Below are positions 11,767 through 39,846 of a stretch of DNA of 39,846 bases, piece by piece. The notes beneath the pieces are model-generated. The model had not been told where the DNA came from, did no database searches, and was given only the letters and a program-made list of their open reading frames with translations. How positions within the stretch are numbered: position 1 is the stretch's first letter; every line of letters starts with the position of its first letter. The translations under genes were made by a program, and so were the position numbers. Source of the stretch: Bdellovibrio sp. Lineage in GTDB: Bacteria; Bdellovibrionota; Bdellovibrionia; Bdellovibrionales; Bdellovibrionaceae. The DNA lies in NCBI GenBank assembly GCA_025359945.1, contig JANYDD010000042.1, positions 1-39,846 on the forward strand. Reading direction: 5' to 3'.

Positions 11767-12501
11767 TTATAGTCGACAGGATCGCCACTGAAGTTGGTAA
11801 ACCAGTTCGCCGTTGACGTCGGCCGAATCCACCACCGCTAAAGTTTGATCTCCACGCCGATTTGTTTGCGACAACATCGAAGCGTTGACTCGCAAATTGA
11901 CTTACGTATGCACATGACGCCACCTACCTGTCGTGTTCGACTGGAGCGCATTCAAGTCGACAATATTCGACAAGGCGAATTTGCTGGCGTCATGTGCATA
12001 GGTGGGCAAATTGACGCTAGCCCCACACGGAGTCCACACCACCGTCGTCGCCAATAAATTATCCGTAACATCGAACCCATCATCGATCGGACCATAGAAA
12101 GATCGACTAATTCTTGGTCCTCGCGATCCCGCCCAAAAATATTCAGCATCGAATCTAGACATCGCACCCGACGGAACGTTCAAGTATCCTCGGTAATCCA
12201 CACCAATCACTGCGACCGAAAACCCTTGAGGAACTTCTACTGGAATCGACAGATTGCACGACTTGCGGTCGACACGTTTTCCAGTGGTACCGCCGGCCTC
12301 GGCACTGAATTGATCAAACAAAATTGACAGCGATTGCTGATCTGGACTGACCGAAGCACTGGCTGTTCCCCCGGGGCATCCGCTACCACCATAAGCTGGT
12401 GATCCTAAACGAATTTGATCTTGACCTCCGTTTTGCGCGTAAGCGCAGTGATAAAATACCCACAGAGAAAATGCGGCTAGAAATGCGACCCTTCGAATCA
12501 T
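11767..12501 (-). pseudogene. DUF4360 secreted protein gene, disrupted by the miniature element
   Basis: ATG 12501, preceded by a GGGGGG ribosome binding site, opens a signal peptide (MIRRVAFLAAFSLWVFYHCAYA). The DUF4360 pattern follows: AYGGSGCPGGTASASVS, ILFDQF, the C-x-L-x-I-P-V-E-V-P-x-G-F segment, YRGYLNVP and TVVWTPCG. After CGASVNL the frame enters the 106-bp element and stops at its right end. On the other side the same frame resumes as NLRVNASMLSQ and ends VYQLQWRSCRL-stop, the expected DUF4360 C-terminus. Removing the element plus one 8-bp repeat gives ASVNLRVNAS with no frame break. The truncated product lacks the last 47 or so residues including the final cysteine, so it is probably non-functional. 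Confidence 0.88.
11901..12006 (-). mobile_element. 106-bp miniature inverted-repeat element, copy 2
   Basis: This is the reverse complement of the element at 259-364 with one base difference. The 15-bp inverted repeat TATGCACATGACGCC is at 11907-11921, and its complement is at about 11986-12000. The 8-bp duplication (CAAATTGA in plus orientation) abuts both ends; the matching direct repeat can be extended to 10 bp, GCAAATTGAC, at 11892 and 12006. Insertion size plus duplication is 114 bp, a multiple of three, but the element brings an in-frame TAA. Confidence 0.9.
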
Positions 12502-32565: not shown

Positions 32566-34158
32566 CTATTTAGGAGTGACCCAGTTTTGCGCTTTAATCG
32601 CTTCAACATCTTGATCCAAAATGGCTTGGGCATTTGGATTATGGGCGTCAATCGCCAGAGCTATAATTCCAGGACTGGTTAATAGATCCTCGGTTTTTTT
32701 CACGCGGCTGCCGTCAGCTCTTAAATAATGGTGGTCGTACGTAGAAATCAACTTCAGCTGAAGCAGCTGTTCAAGCGGTGACGAAGAAAAAATTCCTGCG
32801 GATCGACTGATCAGATGAACCACCCGAACTAAACGTCGAACCGCGTATGTCTGGGGAAGGTTTTTAAATTTGTCGAAATCCAGGTAAGCCAAAACCCCAG
32901 CTTCAGCTTGGCTTAGACCCGTGCCTGAAAAAACTGATCTGGCTTTATGGGACCCGGCCATCCGAGCACCAAAATCAATCACATCCAGCTTTCCATCGGC
33001 ATGTTTAAACATCTCGACATGTGCAAAGCCGGTCTGCAAATCTAGCGCATCCGCAGCATGAACCGCGGCATCAAACAAAGCGCGATGCTGGGTTTCATCA
33101 TATGGGACAAGAATATCAACATCGTAAACTTTTTTTCCATCAGGCAAAACTTGCTTAAGGTAAATCCAAATGTCGGTGCAAATCGTAACTTTTTTTCCGG
33201 TGGCGGGATCCACTGAGCGCACCAAATTCACGACGTACTCTGGCAAATGCAAATACTTTTGAATCAAAACTTTGCTGTTGGAGTTCGAAAACAAATCTCG
33301 GCTTTTTAAAAACCGACGGAAGATCTGCTCGGCTTCCTGGATTGTCCATGCGAACTCTACGCCGTGACCTGCAGCCCCACTCAGCATTTTTAGCGTTAAT
33401 AACGGAGTTTGAATAAGGTCCCCAGTGCGGTTCATCATTTGGTTATCTAAAATCCAGTTTTTTGCAGCTTCCCAAGTATCGAAGGCTTCTTCAGGAAAGT
33501 GTCGTAAGCCGTGGGCTTTAAGAATTTTTCCCATCTCGGACTTGTCACGCCAGCCCACCGAGTAACCAGAATAAGCAATGGCTGGAAAGTAATTTTGAAA
33601 CGCTTTTTGAAATTGGCTACCTAACAAGACCGACGGTTCAAAAGGGGCGACTACCGCAGCCACTCGATTCACTTTAGAAATCAAATAAGTTAAGGCCTGG
33701 ATTTCGTCAGCAGTTTTTTTCCCGTAGAAGTACAGATGTTCATCAATACCGGCCAAAGGGATTGGCCCTAAAAGTTTATCAAACGAAAGCTCAGTGTGAA
33801 TGGCTATTGTTTTGTATCCCAACTTTAAAAACATCGCAGGCAGCATATCGCCCGATGAACGAGGATCAATAATCACAACCGTTCCAGAATTTTTAGCATC
33901 AGAAGTTTTGGCCTTAAGTTCTCTTTTTAAAACTTTTGCATCTAGCTTAAAACTTTCTGGTAGCTGGGTTGGGAACCAATAGTAGGGATTCGTTTTGCTA
34001 AACCTTTTAGGTCCGGCGATGTCCTTTGGGCTAAATTTATTTTTTGTTTGGCCCGGGTCATTGCATCGACCTGCCTGCAAATCCAAAGTCAAAAATAAAC
34101 AACTGGTGCAAACTAGGGCAGCAGCACGCAAAAACAAATGTGTTCGCAGAAATTTCAA
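32566..34158 (-). CDS. Exported ATP-grasp ligase-like protein (copy A)
   Basis: From TTG 34158, chosen because a G7 ribosome binding site precedes it, the protein has 530 residues. The start is a signal-like LFLRAAALVCTSCLFLTLDLQA. A pre-ATP-grasp domain follows with IIDPRSSGDMLPAMFLKLGY (residues about 95-115). The ATP-grasp fold has TLKMLSGAAGHGVEF (Lys257), LPEYVVN (Glu307), GFAHVEM (His380, Glu382) and VIDFGARMAG (Asp395, Arg399). This order is that of amino-acid ligase-type ATP-grasp enzymes, which join a carboxylate to an amine. One metal-site residue is Asp where Glu is usual. ATP is not normally present outside the cytosol, so either the signal acts as an anchor or the enzyme works in another compartment. 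Confidence 0.75.
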   Translation of the reverse strand: MKFLRTHLFLRAAALVCTSCLFLTLDLQAGRCNDPGQTKNKFSPKDIAGPKRFSKTNPYYWFPTQLPESFKLDAKVLKRELKAKTSDAKNSGTVVIIDPRSSGDMLPAMFLKLGYKTIAIHTELSFDKLLGPIPLAGIDEHLYFYGKKTADEIQALTYLISKVNRVAAVVAPFEPSVLLGSQFQKAFQNYFPAIAYSGYSVGWRDKSEMGKILKAHGLRHFPEEAFDTWEAAKNWILDNQMMNRTGDLIQTPLLTLKMLSGAAGHGVEFAWTIQEAEQIFRRFLKSRDLFSNSNSKVLIQKYLHLPEYVVNLVRSVDPATGKKVTICTDIWIYLKQVLPDGKKVYDVDILVPYDETQHRALFDAAVHAADALDLQTGFAHVEMFKHADGKLDVIDFGARMAGSHKARSVFSGTGLSQAEAGVLAYLDFDKFKNLPQTYAVRRLVRVVHLISRSAGIFSSSPLEQLLQLKLISTYDHHYLRADGSRVKKTEDLLTSPGIIALAIDAHNPNAQAILDQDVEAIKAQNWVTPK

Positions 34159-34391
34159 TATCCCCCCCAAAAAATGATCCTAGATCAATCAGAACAACCC
34201 CGAACAGTTCCAAAAGGAAACCAGGATTAAACAACAAATTTTTGAAAGACAACTAAACTTCGTGAATGGACTTGGCTTTGACACTTCGACGCATTTTTCC
34301 TGCGAAAAAACCCCGATATTTTTGCTGAAAAATTCATCAAAGAAATAATATTGTTTGATGCAAGCCAGATTGGCACGCGCAAAAAAGCAAA
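34159..34391. other. Intergenic region upstream of ATP-grasp gene A
   Basis: I see no supported gene. Several short frames here are shadows or AT-rich. The promoter of the minus-strand ATP-grasp gene should lie here. No strong -35/-10 pair was found by eye. Confidence 0.5.
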
Positions 34392-34411
34392 CGGCCGAAA
34401 AAAATCGGCCG
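34392..34411 (-). terminator. Terminator after the minus-strand membrane-protein cluster
   Basis: CGGCCGA (34392-34398) pairs perfectly with TCGGCCG (34405-34411). On the minus strand it is followed by TTTGCTTTTTT, shortly after the stop at 34430. Confidence 0.75.
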
Positions 34412-34429
34412 CATTTTTAAACAAATATT

Positions 34430-35323
34430 TTACCGAAGAGTTCTAGATCTTCGGCAAGAACTTAAAATCCTTTTTCCAAGCGATTCTCGGCCAGTGGCAA
34501 CACCGCCAGCAGCTTGTAAATCTGGATGCGACCTTTCCCAATCCTCGCGCAGCTTCTGAAGAATTCGATGCGTGCTTTGAAAAGACCACCCGACAAGGGA
34601 TTGCCCTTTTTCCAGGGCTTTGTAGACGGCCCCTAACGAGACCAACATCAGCGCGGAAACACCCAGCATCTCGAATCCAGTTACAAAAGGCGATTCTGCA
34701 AACGCTTTTGGCAAGTCAATTTGGTAACCTAATATGTCGATCTTCAGGCGTCCAAACGCGATCAACGACGTAAACGAGCCTATAAAGTTAGTCCCAATGA
34801 TTGCGGCCTGGGTGGTCGTGATATCAACCAATGCGTTGGGCTTAGTTGGAAAGGGCGAATTGGACTTGGCCTGCATCCACCCATAGGCTTCTTTGGCAGT
34901 CGCCACTAAAGGCTCTGGCGTGAATTCATCCGCTATCTGACGAAGCTTCTCGAAATTTTCGCCTGGGGGTGAATCGACGATCTGTCTTGCCGCCGAAATT
35001 CGTTCTGCCAGATCTTGTGGAACAAGATGATTATTCTGGAAATATAAATTTAATAGATTCTGAAAGCTTCGAAGAATTTCCACTTCATTTCCAGATTCAA
35101 CCGCCAATTCTAACCTCGCCCGAATATCGAAAAGATGCCGGCGATTTTTTTGGTAGAAAACATCATAAGCGGCAAAGCTATTAAAAGCTTGCTCCCAAAA
35201 ACTTGAAAACAGGGCCCTGATCCGGTGCAACCCCTTACCAGAGGGATCCGCCGCAATAGCGTTAGTCTCTAACATGCGTTCGCGAAGCACAGGACTGATA
35301 CTTTTGTCGGCATGTGCGTACAT
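34430..35323 (-). CDS. Membrane-cluster protein 3 (may be the frameshifted continuation of protein 2)
   Basis: From ATG 35323 the protein has about 297 residues. The N-terminal two thirds are helical and charged. Two hydrophobic segments follow (about AAIIGTNFIGSFTSLIAFG and EMLGVSALMLVSLGAVYKAL), and the tail is basic. Coding-like sequence in this frame already begins around 35345 (STSFEKIIEMYAHADK), just where protein 2 stops in another frame, which suggests one protein split by a single-base shift near GGGG at about 35353-35356. The frame is open to ATG 35500, but that part is the shadow of protein 2. No family recognised. Confidence 0.5.
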   Translation of the reverse strand: MYAHADKSISPVLRERMLETNAIAADPSGKGLHRIRALFSSFWEQAFNSFAAYDVFYQKNRRHLFDIRARLELAVESGNEVEILRSFQNLLNLYFQNNHLVPQDLAERISAARQIVDSPPGENFEKLRQIADEFTPEPLVATAKEAYGWMQAKSNSPFPTKPNALVDITTTQAAIIGTNFIGSFTSLIAFGRLKIDILGYQIDLPKAFAESPFVTGFEMLGVSALMLVSLGAVYKALEKGQSLVGWSFQSTHRILQKLREDWERSHPDLQAAGGVATGRESLGKRILSSCRRSRTLR

Positions 35324-35342
35324 TTCTATGATCTTTTCAAAA

Positions 35343-36068
35343 CTAGTTGAAATCCCCGATTGGATCAGCAAAATAATTATGCGAATTTGATGGATCCGCT
35401 TTGGGGCCATACAGCGCTGACTGCGGTACATATTCCATGACGTCCAAATAATACTGACTAACAGTAATCCTAACATTGCTGGCGTCAGGCGAAGTCTCAT
35501 TTAAAATTCGATTGTTTTCTAAACCAAGATTTCCGACCGTACTGCAAAATCGGTGCCTAACTAAACTGGCCGTGTATCTAAATCGGTCAAAAAAACGTGC
35601 GATTGCTGGGCTATCGTTTCTAATTTTCTGAAGGGACTGATATTTGCTTTGAGCTATTTCAACGGCTTCTTTTAAAAACTGCGGATCAATTTCACTGAAT
35701 CTCGCACCCAGCTTACCGGAAGCCAGCGCGCCTAAGGCCAAATTAGCTTCGTGCGTTGTGCGGGTCACATCTTCGAAAAAATGAGGGTCTTGGTGAGCTA
35801 CTTCGATGGTTTTTTTATCCAAGTCCCCTTTTTCAATCAAAGCTAACATTAGGCCCAGGTCGATCGCATCATTTCCATCTTGTTGGGAAACGACGAGCAA
35901 AGAAATCATCAAAGCAAGGCTCTCGACCTTTTTTTTCTCGACATATTTTTCTTGAAGTACTTGTCGATTGGCTTCAATTTTCGCAGAACTAGTCACCAAC
36001 GGCCAGTTAAGGGCTTTGCCCCAATAGGGTCTAAGACCCCGCTGAGCTGCGTAAATCATATTGGTCAT
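35343..36068 (-). CDS. Membrane-cluster protein 2, unknown
   Basis: ATG 36068 overlaps the stop of protein 1 in an ATGA arrangement and opens MTNMIYAAQRGLRPYWGKAL. The protein has about 241 residues, mostly helical, with one weak hydrophobic segment (ESLALMISLLVVSQQDG). It ends YFADPIGDFN-stop. It has no recognised domain. It may be a separate protein in an operon with protein 1, or the middle of a larger protein broken by frameshifts at both ends. Confidence 0.5.
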   Translation of the reverse strand: MTNMIYAAQRGLRPYWGKALNWPLVTSSAKIEANRQVLQEKYVEKKKVESLALMISLLVVSQQDGNDAIDLGLMLALIEKGDLDKKTIEVAHQDPHFFEDVTRTTHEANLALGALASGKLGARFSEIDPQFLKEAVEIAQSKYQSLQKIRNDSPAIARFFDRFRYTASLVRHRFCSTVGNLGLENNRILNETSPDASNVRITVSQYYLDVMEYVPQSALYGPKADPSNSHNYFADPIGDFN

Positions 36069-37162
36069 TCGGAACACATTCGCCAAATGAAACCAAAAGG
36101 TTTCATTCCAGAATACACGAATCCTCTTGCTGCTTCAAAAGTTCCGAAAGCTGCTTTGTGCACGAAGCCGCCTAACACCAGAAGTAAATTTGGGATCAAC
36201 ATGAGTGTGCTTACCGAAATCGCCATCGCCCCATAAGCATACGCTGGGTCATTGAACACGTCTGATTTTATGACTGCATAGGCTTTGTTGAACAAATGAA
36301 CGGCCCATTGCGGACCAATACCGTGGCCCAAAGTCGAATAAACGGCAAATCCTAAAAGCCCCGCAGTGACCAATCCCAAATAACGAAATTTATTTCCTTG
36401 AAAGTGATAGGGCAATCTTTCAATCATTGGTTCAAATTTAGGTGAATGAATTCCATTTTGGAACGAGGTTAAATTTCCTTGCGCCAAACCTTCGCTTATA
36501 GTTTGGCCGAAGGCACGATCGGCGCCATGGATCTGCAAGCTTTTTTGAACTCGGGGGGGGGCTTTCGCTTTTTCACTTAAGTTTTGATAGGCCTCGGGGC
36601 GCTGATCCCCCAGGATCCGGGCCATCTGTGCATTCATTTTTGCTCTGGCGTCAGGGGCCAAATTTCCCGATGCCCTTGCAACCATCGCTGGCAACACCGG
36701 TGGTGACAGGGTTCGCAGGGCCGCTGCCGACAATGGATCAACGTTGTTACTTTGGTTTTCCAAAAACTGCTGATACTCGGGACTTGTCTTGAAAAGTTCG
36801 TTCGAGGCCTGCAAATTTTGAAAAGTTTTAGCACTTGGTAGAATCAAACTTCCCAAGCGTCCCAAAGCTCCCTGCACCACATGCAGGTGGGTTCTGATCA
36901 CGTCGCGATCAAAGATTCCTGCGATTGATACTCCACTTTGATCGCGCACCATCACCGTCAAATGGCCAAAGCGAAAGACACCGCGAGCGCCTTCTTCCAA
37001 AGGAAATTTGGCTTGCGGGTGCAAGGGGTACGACAATCCATCGTTAAAAAAGGCGGCGCTTTCAACTCGAGTGCTGGCCGGAAGCGCTGGAATGGACCCC
37101 ACATCGATCACCGGCAGAACAGATGAAAAGCATTCGAATTTAGCAGTGATCGCATCCATCAT
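36065..37162 (-). CDS. Membrane-cluster protein 1, unknown
   Basis: ATG 37162 or 37159 opens MMDAITAKFECFSSVLPVID. The protein has about 365 residues. The first 240 are soluble with no signal, including a possible sensory-like FRFGHLTVMVRDQSGVSIAG and Pro/Ala-rich linkers. Two membrane helices lie near the C-terminus (YLGLVTAGLLGFAVYSTLG and AMAISVSTLMLIPNLLLVLG). No ribosome binding site is evident; it follows the start-less ORF at 37169 by a few bases. The ATGA overlap with protein 2 suggests coupling. No family recognised. Confidence 0.55.
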   Translation of the reverse strand: MMDAITAKFECFSSVLPVIDVGSIPALPASTRVESAAFFNDGLSYPLHPQAKFPLEEGARGVFRFGHLTVMVRDQSGVSIAGIFDRDVIRTHLHVVQGALGRLGSLILPSAKTFQNLQASNELFKTSPEYQQFLENQSNNVDPLSAAALRTLSPPVLPAMVARASGNLAPDARAKMNAQMARILGDQRPEAYQNLSEKAKAPPRVQKSLQIHGADRAFGQTISEGLAQGNLTSFQNGIHSPKFEPMIERLPYHFQGNKFRYLGLVTAGLLGFAVYSTLGHGIGPQWAVHLFNKAYAVIKSDVFNDPAYAYGAMAISVSTLMLIPNLLLVLGGFVHKAAFGTFEAARGFVYSGMKPFGFIWRMCSE

Positions 37163-37168
37163 CAAAAT

Positions 37169-37417
37169 TCAGCCGTCTTTGGTAATTACCGATATCAATT
37201 CCTGATCGCCGGCACTGACCGCGCCGTTGATGTTTCCGATAATATGTTCGGCTCGCATTCTTTTTTTAAGTCGACTAGGGCCCAAACCCGCCGTCAGATT
37301 GTCTTTCCATTTTTGGAGGTTGGTGTAATCGCCTTCCGCGTATTCGTAGACCAGGCGCAGGGTCTGATCATCTGGGTTTAAATGAATCTTAAATATCGCG
37401 GTAAAAATTATTTCGTT
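37169..37417 (-). pseudogene. Start-less, coding-like ORF upstream of protein 1
   Basis: This 82-codon open frame has no ATG, GTG or TTG before residue 56, yet reads like protein: NPDDQTLRLVYEYAEGDYTN, then LQKWKDNLTAGLGPSRLKKR and HIIGNINGAVSAGDQELISV. It ends at TGA 37169, six bases before the next start. It may be the truncated remnant of a gene, or it may use a rare start: ATT within TAATT at about 37405 is the same layout as inferred for TolC. No family recognised. Confidence 0.4.
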
Positions 37418-37895
37418 TCAATGGAACTTTTGGAGGTTGGTCTTTTAATAAATTGAATCGCGAACACCTGCGCTAAAATGTAGTAATTAATTTTTTTGAA
37501 ATTCGCTTTTCGCAAATCACTTCTGCGAAAACCATGAAGCGTTAACTAGGACAAAACATTTAAAAACCGCATCAAATAGCTTCGTAAAGAATTCACCCAG
37601 ACAACTCACTTTCATGGTGGAACAAGTTCAAGGTCGAACAGGCTGTGAAAAGGCGAAGTCGAACACTATTCTTAAAAGTGCTTTTTGAGCAATGAAAAAG
37701 CGCAAAGAGAAAAAAATAAAATGCTCCATCGTGACCCGGACAAAAATCAATGACGAAAAAAGTGGAGCAAAAAAATCTAAGTTTTGACCCAACTACTGAT
37801 GAATTTTTAAGTCCTCCTTAGTGTTTTTTTCTTGTGCGAAAAATCATTCTTCGCTACATCCAATGCTTCTCAAACATCGGCAACCGGGGGCTCCT
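37418..37895. other. 478-bp intergenic region with several inverted repeats
   Basis: There is no confident gene. Structures seen are TTTTCGCA (37507-37514) with TGCGAAAA (37524-37531), GCTTTTT (37680-37686) with AAAAAGC (37695-37701), and TGCTCCA (37724-37730) with TGGAGCA (37763-37769). Short plus-strand frames of 24 and 31 codons (the latter Lys-rich from ATG 37692) lack support. A coding-like minus frame of about 45 codons ending near 37410 has no start. The region must carry promoters for both flanking transcription units. Confidence 0.5.
37712..37769 (-). terminator. Possible minus-strand terminator with no gene upstream
   Basis: On the minus strand TGCTCCA and TGGAGCA pair (with extra TCGT/ACGA pairing inside) and are followed by TTTTATTTTTTT. 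The loop is long, so efficiency is uncertain. If real, it ends a transcript starting between 37770 and about 38000. Confidence 0.3.
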
Positions 37896-38030
37896 ATGAA
37901 AAAACCAGTGATCGCAAGACAGACTCCCTCGCAAATTGAACTTTTTCCTCGAATCGAAATCGCCGGCCGCCATCACCATCATCACTGCCGTCACCAACTG
38001 AAAGGCCGTTTTTTCATGGCGACGAGATAA
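37896..38030 (+). CDS. 44-residue His-rich ORF, possible leader peptide
   Basis: ATG 37896 is preceded by GGGGG and encodes MKKPVIARQTPSQIELFPRI followed by a run of five His codons and Cys-Arg-His (about residues 26-33), then a basic end. It stops 8 bp before ATP-grasp gene B. Runs of one amino acid just before a gene are typical of transcription attenuation leaders such as hisL. Here CGGCC (37964-37968) could pair with GGCCG (38004-38008), which is followed by TTTTTT. Five base pairs and a 35-base loop make a weak terminator, so a metal-binding micro-protein is an equal alternative. Confidence 0.45.
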   Translation: MKKPVIARQTPSQIELFPRIEIAGRHHHHHCRHQLKGRFFMATR

Positions 38031-38038
38031 GACATCCC

Positions 38039-39709
38039 ATGAAATTTTATACCAGCAATTTAGAAAATATTTCGAAGTCGGACGTCTATTTACAACTCAG
38101 AGCTGGGCTCTGGTCGCTGGCCTTAACGGTGATCAGTGCAACTTTCTCTTCGCAAAATCCTGCACTGGCCAATTCTTGCAAAGAATCCAAGAGTAATCCA
38201 GAGTCCCGCCCTACTTTTGAAGTACCCAATGCCGTCAGGCCGTGGCCCCTTTGGAGCGCTTCCAGCGGCGCCATCGCCAAAGGCCGAAAAGTGGTTGTAA
38301 TTGTTGGGCCCTATTCGTCAGGTTCTCTCTTGGGAAAGGTCGCTAAAAGCGGCTGGGTTCATGATGGCCCTGAAGATTTTGTGGTCGCCGTTGAAGACAA
38401 AGAAAACGTATTACCTGCAGCAGCAAGGCCGACGGAAGGTTTTGATCTTGAAATTCCCTGGACCGCCCATCGGGGAGACCACCTTCAGCTGATTGGAGTA
38501 GTAAAAAGTCTGGGCGGCGAAGTTGTCTTAGTTCAACCCGGCTATGAATATGCCACCCGACTGGCCTTTGAGACTCTGCAAAAGGGATTTCCGCATTTAA
38601 TGCCGTTAGCGGATGGTTGGGAACCTTTCCAAAGCAAAAAAGTATTGGGCGAAAAGACCCGCACGTTAAGCCGCCAAGTACAGCGAGTTTTTAGTAGTCT
38701 TGAACGCCTGCAGGACTGGCTGATCCAATTTAGCAACGGTTTTAGCAATGGTGGCGATAAACTTCCCTACCCTTTGATGTTCAAGGCCGTTCAAGGCGCA
38801 GCTAGTGTTGGAAATCAACGGGTGGATACCGTGAAACAAGGGATTGCGGCCTTTAACAGTTTGATCGGATTGCCCCTAACCAAGGGAATTAAAAATGATG
38901 AGGTTCACGTTTCAAAGTTTATCGAGGGCCCTGAAGTCGCGGTGAACATCGCCCGATTTACGGATCCTAAATCAGGAAAGACTTATCACAAGGTTAGCTC
39001 AGCGATTTTAATTTTAAAGGATTTTATTAATGGGCATCCCGTTTACAAGCGCGAGATTCTGCTGAACTTTAAAGATCCAAATTTGCAACGGAATATGCGC
39101 AAGGTCCTGGGAAGCCAAGCACCCTTGATTGACCGCGATAAAATCTTTGGCTACGTCAAAAAGTGGTCTGATGCTGTTGGATTCAAAAATGGACCCGGCC
39201 ATAGCGAAGTGATGATCGATCCCAATTTGAGTGGAGGGTTAGAAGGACCCTTTATTGAAGGCATAGATTTCGCCCTTCGCCTGATGGGCGGACGACGTGT
39301 GGCTTGGAGCCGCCGGGCCTCATATTTGTTCAAGGGCAATCAATTGGGCGATGCAGAATACGGGTACGCAGCGCTAAGAAATCCTGAAAGGTTTAAGCAG
39401 TTGCCCGACTACAACGAACCTTGGGGAATCGCTGGAGTGGTTTTTCTTAGAACGGCCACAGGTGGAAAAATTTCTGCTCAGGCTTTTGAACAGTTAAAAG
39501 CCCTAGTTAAGTCTGGAAAAATAAAATCGACTTTAAATGTGGGCGTCTGGCCTGTGGGCGCGACTGTCCCCATCACAAGTAATTTAGGTAATATCCCAGG
39601 GTTTATCGAATTCGTTTTGGATCCGTCTAGGGTTGAACCTTCCGAAGACGCCTTCGATAGGCTCATTCAAGAAATGGATCTAGTCGATGCCCTCAATTGG
39701 GTTAACTAG
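38039..39709 (+). CDS. Exported ATP-grasp ligase-like protein (copy B)
   Basis: The 556-residue protein has a long N-terminal region, then a signal-like core ending SSQNPALA about residue 45. A pre-ATP-grasp domain follows (VVVIVGPYSSGSLLGKVAKS, about 85-105). The ATP-grasp part has MFKAVQGAASVGN (Lys249), EGPEVAVN (Glu299), GPGHSEVMID (His388, Glu390) and FIEGIDFALRLMGG (Asp about 410). The motif order and the P-x-S-S-G and H-x-E-x-M/V signatures match copy A, so they are distant paralogs. Overall identity is low. The expected product is a peptide- or amide-bond-forming ligase. It starts 8 bp after the His-rich ORF and ends with its own terminator. As for copy A, the predicted export is odd for an ATP-dependent enzyme. 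Confidence 0.72.
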   Translation: MKFYTSNLENISKSDVYLQLRAGLWSLALTVISATFSSQNPALANSCKESKSNPESRPTFEVPNAVRPWPLWSASSGAIAKGRKVVVIVGPYSSGSLLGKVAKSGWVHDGPEDFVVAVEDKENVLPAAARPTEGFDLEIPWTAHRGDHLQLIGVVKSLGGEVVLVQPGYEYATRLAFETLQKGFPHLMPLADGWEPFQSKKVLGEKTRTLSRQVQRVFSSLERLQDWLIQFSNGFSNGGDKLPYPLMFKAVQGAASVGNQRVDTVKQGIAAFNSLIGLPLTKGIKNDEVHVSKFIEGPEVAVNIARFTDPKSGKTYHKVSSAILILKDFINGHPVYKREILLNFKDPNLQRNMRKVLGSQAPLIDRDKIFGYVKKWSDAVGFKNGPGHSEVMIDPNLSGGLEGPFIEGIDFALRLMGGRRVAWSRRASYLFKGNQLGDAEYGYAALRNPERFKQLPDYNEPWGIAGVVFLRTATGGKISAQAFEQLKALVKSGKIKSTLNVGVWPVGATVPITSNLGNIPGFIEFVLDPSRVEPSEDAFDRLIQEMDLVDALNWVN

Positions 39710-39772
39710 TCGGCCCGGAAAAAGTCAAAAATCGTTGATTCCAGCAGAAAGCATTTTGATTTGTTATGTTTG

Positions 39773-39819
39773 AAACGACCGGGATGAAGCGGTGAGACTT
39801 CAAAATCCGGTCGTTTTTT
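39773..39819 (+). terminator. Terminator after ATP-grasp gene B
   Basis: AACGACCGG (39774-39782) pairs with CCGGTCGTT (about 39807-39815), with a second GAAG/CTTC pairing inside, followed by TTTTTT. It lies 64 bp after the stop codon. Confidence 0.85.
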
Positions 39820-39846
39820 GTTTGAATTTTTAAATGAAAAACAAAA

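What the first reader, a model, noticed from the sequence alone, without database searches (positions are those of the whole stretch)
32566..39709. Two exported ATP-grasp proteins flanking a membrane-protein cluster
Both genes encode ATP-grasp enzymes with recognisable lysine, glutamate, H-x-E and IDFxxR positions, and both begin with signal-like segments. ATP-grasp enzymes need ATP, which the periplasm lacks. Possible explanations: they are secreted into a host or prey cell, they are membrane-anchored facing the cytosol, or they use a different donor. Placement around an unknown membrane cluster suggests a dedicated system, for example making and exporting a peptide.
Basis: partly seen in the sequence, partly recalled or inferred. 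Interest (0 to 1): 0.75.

Follow-up and report, generated by a model that had tools for sequence, protein, structure and literature searches.

The report
Secreted ATP-grasp ligases in a Bdellovibrio relative
A relative of the predatory bacterium Bdellovibrio carries four related ATP-using amino-acid-joining enzymes that all bear an export signal and keep their catalytic residues, which is odd because there should be no ATP outside the cell unless they work inside a prey or host cell; the "membrane-protein cluster" between two of them is only the wreck of one broken gene.

Summary
The observation on the two ATP-grasp proteins holds. The 534-aa (32566-34170, -) and 556-aa (38039-39709, +) proteins are L-amino-acid-ligase-type ATP-grasps (best PDB match 3VOT for both models; VIA-align Z 29.6 for the first). 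Both start with a Sec-type leader. It is not a start-site artefact: the genome holds two more leader-bearing paralogs, and a search of 369 genomes of the phylum, which contains Bdellovibrio, found 20 leader-bearing genes in 9 genomes and 5 families. All 19 full-length ones keep both ATP lysines, HxE, the second acidic ligand and the arginine; 19 of 20 carry a cysteine soon after the leader, often the only one. The leaderless sister clade (Bdellovibrio kdesi, Legionella and others) lacks the leader.

The "membrane-protein cluster" does not stand: it is one gene, intact elsewhere in the genome (1355 codons, contig C35), broken here by three out-of-frame deletions. A dedicated peptide-making and exporting system is not supported.

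Best explanation: Sec-exported, catalytically competent amino-acid ligases, diversified like effectors, acting where foreign ATP exists (prey or host). Export and competence are inferred from sequence; site of action and substrate are conjecture. I found no published description in the open-access papers searched.

The parts
32566..34170 (-). 534-aa leader-bearing ATP-grasp protein, L-amino-acid-ligase type (TTG start; stop included)
   Evidence: ORF; NCBIfam PRK07206 1.4e-53, DdaF 4.8e-26; PDB 30vh L-amino acid ligase 1.2e-17; model and fold match to 3VOT
34072..34170 (-). predicted Sec leader of the 534-aa protein (residues 1-33, LQA|GRC; an alternative TTG start at residue 5 leaves the leader intact)
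   Evidence: read from sequence; rule-based check; no SignalP available
32569..33885 (-). ATP-grasp catalytic region of the 534-aa protein (residues 96-534; K210, K261, E311, H384xE386, D399, R403)
   Evidence: VIA-align covers model residues 93-534
   Evidence: blastn 78% over 2136 bp, 77% over 755 bp, 75% over 162 bp; tblastn fragments in different frames
38039..39709 (+). 556-aa leader-bearing ATP-grasp protein (ATG start; stop included)
   Evidence: PRK07206 2.6e-12; model and fold match to 3VOT and YwfE
38039..38170 (+). predicted Sec leader of the 556-aa protein (residues 1-44, ALA|NSC)
   Evidence: read from sequence
38171..38179 (+). first three codons of the predicted mature 556-aa protein, N-S-C: the cysteine kept near the N-end of 19 of 20 relatives, here the only cysteine of the protein

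Best explanation
The two proteins belong to a branch of the L-amino-acid-ligase-type ATP-grasp family, found in Bdellovibrionota, that has acquired a cleavable Sec leader. They are exported, stay catalytically competent, and join an amino acid (or amine) to a carboxylate via an acyl-phosphate, using ATP that is not in their own periplasm: most likely ATP of a prey or host cell whose pools they meet after secretion. Sequence diversity, patchy occurrence and several copies per genome fit secreted effectors better than a house-keeping enzyme. Shown by computation: family, fold, conserved active site, leader in 20 genes, paralog expansion. Inferred: cleavage and export, activity. Conjecture: prey or host as the place of action, and the substrate. 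The membrane cluster plays no part.
For: Leader in 4 genes of this genome and 16 others, in 9 genomes and 5 families altogether. Catalytic residues kept in all full-length leader-bearing members although most are only about 16-44% identical. Fold: best PDB match for both models is L-amino acid ligase 3VOT, with YwfE and RizA close. The four paralogs of this genome form one clade (SH-aLRT 99) and leader-bearing genes cluster on the tree (5 label changes; 0 of 500 shuffles as low; mean 14). [quoted passage not shown]
Against: No experiment. SignalP was not available; leaders were judged by rule and eye. It is not known whether this organism is a predator. It has no PF03219 ATP/ADP translocase, and that family is almost absent from the phylum, so there is no genetic sign that it handles prey ATP that way. 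Most genomes of the family, including nearly all of genus g6 (Bdellovibrio), lack these genes, so they are not core predation genes. The 556-aa model is of modest confidence (pLDDT 63.5).
Confidence: 0.5

Rival explanations
1. Exported, but working in the organism's own periplasm or at its surface with leaked or extracellular ATP, or with another phosphoryl donor, for example adding amino acids to its own envelope.
For: Leaders and intact active site as above. One paralog is convergent with a D-Ala-D-Ala-carboxypeptidase-like exported gene on C102 (my reading of the ORF).
Against: The ATP-binding lysines are kept, so the donor is probably still ATP; neighbours are not shared between loci; patchy distribution does not fit an envelope function.
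Confidence: 0.2
2. The hydrophobic N-end is an uncleaved anchor and the enzyme acts in the cytosol or at the inner face of the membrane.
For: Would solve the ATP problem; the leaders are not all perfect (the 556-aa h-region is weak, KD 1.68).
Against: Positive charge lies before the hydrophobic stretch in most members, which places the enzyme outside; AxA-like sites follow; a cysteine follows.
Confidence: 0.12
3. Exported proteins that have lost catalysis and use the ATP-grasp fold only to bind a ligand.
For: Would also remove the ATP problem; some columns are relaxed (the second acidic residue is Asp instead of Glu in this genome).
Against: Both lysines, HxE, acidic residue and arginine are invariant across very divergent members.
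Confidence: 0.13
4. One reading: a dedicated system in which two ATP-grasp enzymes and a membrane-protein cluster make and export a peptide.
For: The three units lie next to each other in the window.
Against: The cluster is a broken copy of one gene with three frame-breaking deletions; the intact copy on C35 has no ATP-grasp gene on its contig; other paralogs have unrelated neighbours; no precursor or transporter found.
Confidence: 0.05

Closest known systems
L-amino acid ligases of the ATP-grasp superfamily: BL00235 (PDB 3VOT), YwfE/BacD (3WNZ, 3VMM), RizA (4WD3), PDB 30vh
   Same: Fold over the whole domain (Z 29.6, 381 residues aligned, for the 534-aa model), order of elements, two ATP lysines, metal-binding acidic residues and arginine
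   Different: About 16% identity in the structure alignment; the solved enzymes align only from model residue 92 on, whereas these have a Sec leader before it
NCBIfam PRK07206 and dapdiamide A synthase DdaF
   Same: Best sequence-profile matches (1.4e-53 and 4.8e-26 for the 534-aa protein)
   Different: Scores (182 and 91 bits) far under the curated cut-offs (302 and 840)
Leaderless clade of Legionella, Bdellovibrio kdesi, Obscuribacterales, Chryseobacterium (loci L097-L124)
   Same: Same catalytic residues; 26-30% identical to the 534-aa protein
   Different: No reliable leader in any of the loci checked; one tight clade (SH-aLRT 100) apart from the leader-bearing genes
Secreted ATP-grasp domain of animal C7orf58 (PMC2824669)
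   Same: An ATP-grasp ligase domain predicted to act outside the cytosol
   Different: Tubulin-tyrosine-ligase-like, in the eukaryotic secretory route, fused to an esterase
CDC123-like ATP-grasp proteins linked to type VI or type IV secretion (PMC4431377)
   Same: ATP-grasp ligases proposed as effectors delivered into other cells
   Different: Other ATP-grasp clade (R2K); no Sec leader mentioned in the paper's text as searched; other secretion routes

Membership tests
ATP-grasp superfamily, L-amino-acid-ligase type | ATP-grasp fold with best structural match to L-amino acid ligases | tested here: met
   3VOT first for both models
ATP-grasp superfamily, L-amino-acid-ligase type | two ATP-binding lysines, acidic metal ligands (HxE and D/E), catalytic-site arginine | tested here: met
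   invariant in both window proteins and in all other full-length leader-bearing members
ATP-grasp superfamily, L-amino-acid-ligase type | ATP-dependent joining of amino acids | not testable with these tools
   needs enzyme assay
dapdiamide A synthase (NF041595) or PRK07206 (NF005543) | score above the curated cut-off | tested here: not met
   91.5 vs 840 and 182 vs 302 bits for 534 aa; lower for 556 aa
Sec / signal peptidase I substrates | positive n-region, hydrophobic core, small residues at -3 and -1 | tested here: met
   by rule and by eye (the 534-aa site has Leu at -3, as LQA); no SignalP; cleavage not shown
bacterial lipoproteins | lipobox [LVI][ASTVI][GAS]C | tested here: not met
   AGRC, ANSC, AVQC, ALVC, GPVC do not fit; one paralog (ISSC) does
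Tat substrates | twin-arginine motif before the hydrophobic core | tested here: not met
   no RR in the n-regions of the four paralogs of this genome
graspetide or dipeptide biosynthetic cluster | precursor or tailoring genes and transporter conserved beside the ligase | tested here: not met
   no gene family shared as an immediate neighbour between the loci; the membrane gene here is broken

The most novel reading that the evidence does not exclude
A previously undescribed class of secreted bacterial effectors: Sec-exported ATP-grasp amino-acid ligases that run on the ATP of the prey or host and tag or modify its molecules, expanded in Bdellovibrionota and marked by a cysteine at the mature N-end.
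Probability: 0.4. Interest if true: 0.82.

Novelty: new variant of a known kind. Interest (0 to 1): 0.62.

Why it matters
ATP-grasp ligases need ATP and are known as cytosolic enzymes in bacteria. A conserved, catalytically intact, leader-bearing branch makes a clean, testable question: do predators or intracellular bacteria send out enzymes that spend the victim's ATP? If so it would be a new enzyme class for interbacterial or host conflict and a new protein- or peptide-modifying activity outside the cell.

Tried and rejected
A genome-contig scan with the 534-aa protein alone found no relative and alignment A2 had no stretch conserved enough for a scan; the scan with the leaderless alignment A4 gave the taxonomy and the wider family instead. 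Co-occurrence with an ATP/ADP translocase (PF03219): absent from this genome, 2 of 369 in the phylum. Lipoprotein and Tat export: motifs do not fit. Intramolecular disulfide for the N-end cysteine: excluded as a general rule, since five members have no other cysteine in the mature protein. Remnant of an ATP-grasp gene beside the intact 1355-codon gene on C35: none found. A viral-contig scan with the 821-aa HD protein of the window gave nothing. Papers on ATP-grasp with Bdellovibrio: two, neither describing this.

Full report
Observation. Sequence profiles place both in the ATP-grasp superfamily near L-amino acid ligases: NCBIfam PRK07206 and dapdiamide A synthase, below the curated cut-offs; PDB 30vh, an L-amino acid ligase, matches the 534-aa protein at 1.2e-17. 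AlphaFold2 models, built with relatives from the search for related loci, match L-amino acid ligase 3VOT best; for the 534-aa model VIA-align gives Z 29.6, rmsd 3.1, 381 residues. The first 77 residues of the 534-aa model have pLDDT under 50, as expected for a leader and linker.

The leader is real by every check available. The same genome has two other paralogs (C102 and C63) with leaders and one distant relative without (C18). The family search (66 genomes) found one more leader-bearing gene in another genus, G008. A 19-row alignment extended the search to 369 genomes of the phylum. After reading the ORFs I count 20 leader-bearing genes in 9 genomes of 5 families: G000 four, G278 four, G273, G275, G276, G277 and G317 two each, G008 and G139 one each. 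Net positive charge precedes the hydrophobic stretch in most of them by script (the script found no stretch in one and mis-located it in two others, which I read by eye). A cysteine follows within 30 residues in 17 by script and 19 by reading, against 12 of 40 other exported-looking ORFs of the same loci, several of them lipoproteins (Fisher p 6e-5 by script counts, 1e-6 by reading; the genes are related, so this is only indicative). In five members it is the only cysteine of the mature protein.

The active site is kept. In the alignment, K200, K249, H388, E390, D/E410, R414 (556-aa numbering) are present in every full-length leader-bearing member; E299 in all but one, where the alignment may have slipped; one member is cut by a contig end.

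Taxonomy. Genome G045, in the same family as the window's genome, has a contig of 3,343,978 bases carrying the match at the position that the search for related loci names as NZ_CP102930.1, Bdellovibrio bacteriovorus strain kdesi. The window therefore lies in a member of the GTDB family of Bdellovibrio, in a genus of which no other genome was listed. Whether it preys on bacteria is not known.

Evolution. On the tree the four paralogs of this genome form one clade (SH-aLRT 99), with the 534-aa protein as the deepest branch. The leaderless genes of Bdellovibrio kdesi, Legionella, Coxiellaceae, Obscuribacterales and Chryseobacterium form a tight separate clade (100). A search of 22 named genomes, mostly from other phyla, found no member with a reliable leader; other phyla were not searched exhaustively. 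Deep branches are weakly supported, so one or several gains of the leader cannot be told apart.

The membrane cluster. A copy of the three fragments exists as one 1355-codon ORF at C35:4371-8435. The window copy lacks about 333, 22 and 527 bp, each out of frame, and the remaining large protein fragments are 70-83% identical. No relative was found in the other 99 or so related genomes searched. It is a pseudogene, and its neighbourhood with the ATP-grasp genes is not repeated at the other paralogs. A 130-bp sequence that ends the window directly after the 556-aa gene also occurs, identical, on C35 and C102, and C35 carries a transposase ORF, so the region has been rearranged by repeats.

How it probably works. 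By homology (established for L-amino acid ligases) the enzyme forms an acyl-phosphate on a carboxylate with ATP-Mg and lets an amine attack. Outside the cytosol this needs ATP from elsewhere. In Bdellovibrio, prey cytoplasmic and periplasmic pools are reported to equilibrate to some degree, and prey nucleotide phosphate esters are used directly (PMC10482364); Sec-dependent leaders there drive release to the medium (PMC12622784). A secreted ligase spending the victim's ATP is thus plausible, and the diversity, patchiness and copy number fit effectors. This last step is conjecture: the organism's lifestyle, the export and the substrate are all untested, and the lack of a PF03219 translocase gives no help.

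Novelty. Precedents for ATP-grasp ligases outside their own cytosol are the predicted secreted domain of animal C7orf58 (PMC2824669) and CDC123-like proteins proposed as type IV or VI effectors (PMC4431377); both are from other ATP-grasp clades. In the open-access papers searched I found no account of Sec-exported L-amino-acid-ligase-type ATP-grasps in bacteria. Automatic annotations in protein databases were not searched.

Noticed in passing
34430-37614 and contig C35:4371-8435 (L036): A large orphan gene (1355 codons, three TM-like stretches, leader-like N-end) present twice in this genome, once broken; no relative in about 99 other related genomes.
   Followed up: partly
39707-39836; L036:3269-3398; L037:11-140: A 130-bp sequence, 100% identical on three contigs, with a terminator-like hairpin; it lies at or near two contig ends and looks like a mobile or dispersed repeat.
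   Followed up: partly
259-367, 11901-12006; L036:9126-9234: A 106-109-bp repeat, 99% identical, at the edge of an IS3-type transposase ORF on C35 and twice in the window.
   Followed up: no
L039:6467-7951: A distant leaderless ATP-grasp relative of this genome lies just upstream of a diaminopimelate-decarboxylase-like ORF and near a DapD-like ORF (my reading), so it may belong to lysine metabolism.
   Followed up: no
L043:6420-9600: Two tandem leader-bearing ATP-grasp genes in genome G277, both with A-L-I-D-[SA]-C after the leader.
   Followed up: partly
L022 (G274): A leaderless relative sits beside an NRPS-like adenylation ORF (my reading), suggesting natural-product synthesis for that branch.
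   Followed up: no
all leader-bearing members: The cysteine a few residues after the predicted cleavage site is unexplained; rarely a lipobox and often no partner cysteine.
   Followed up: partly
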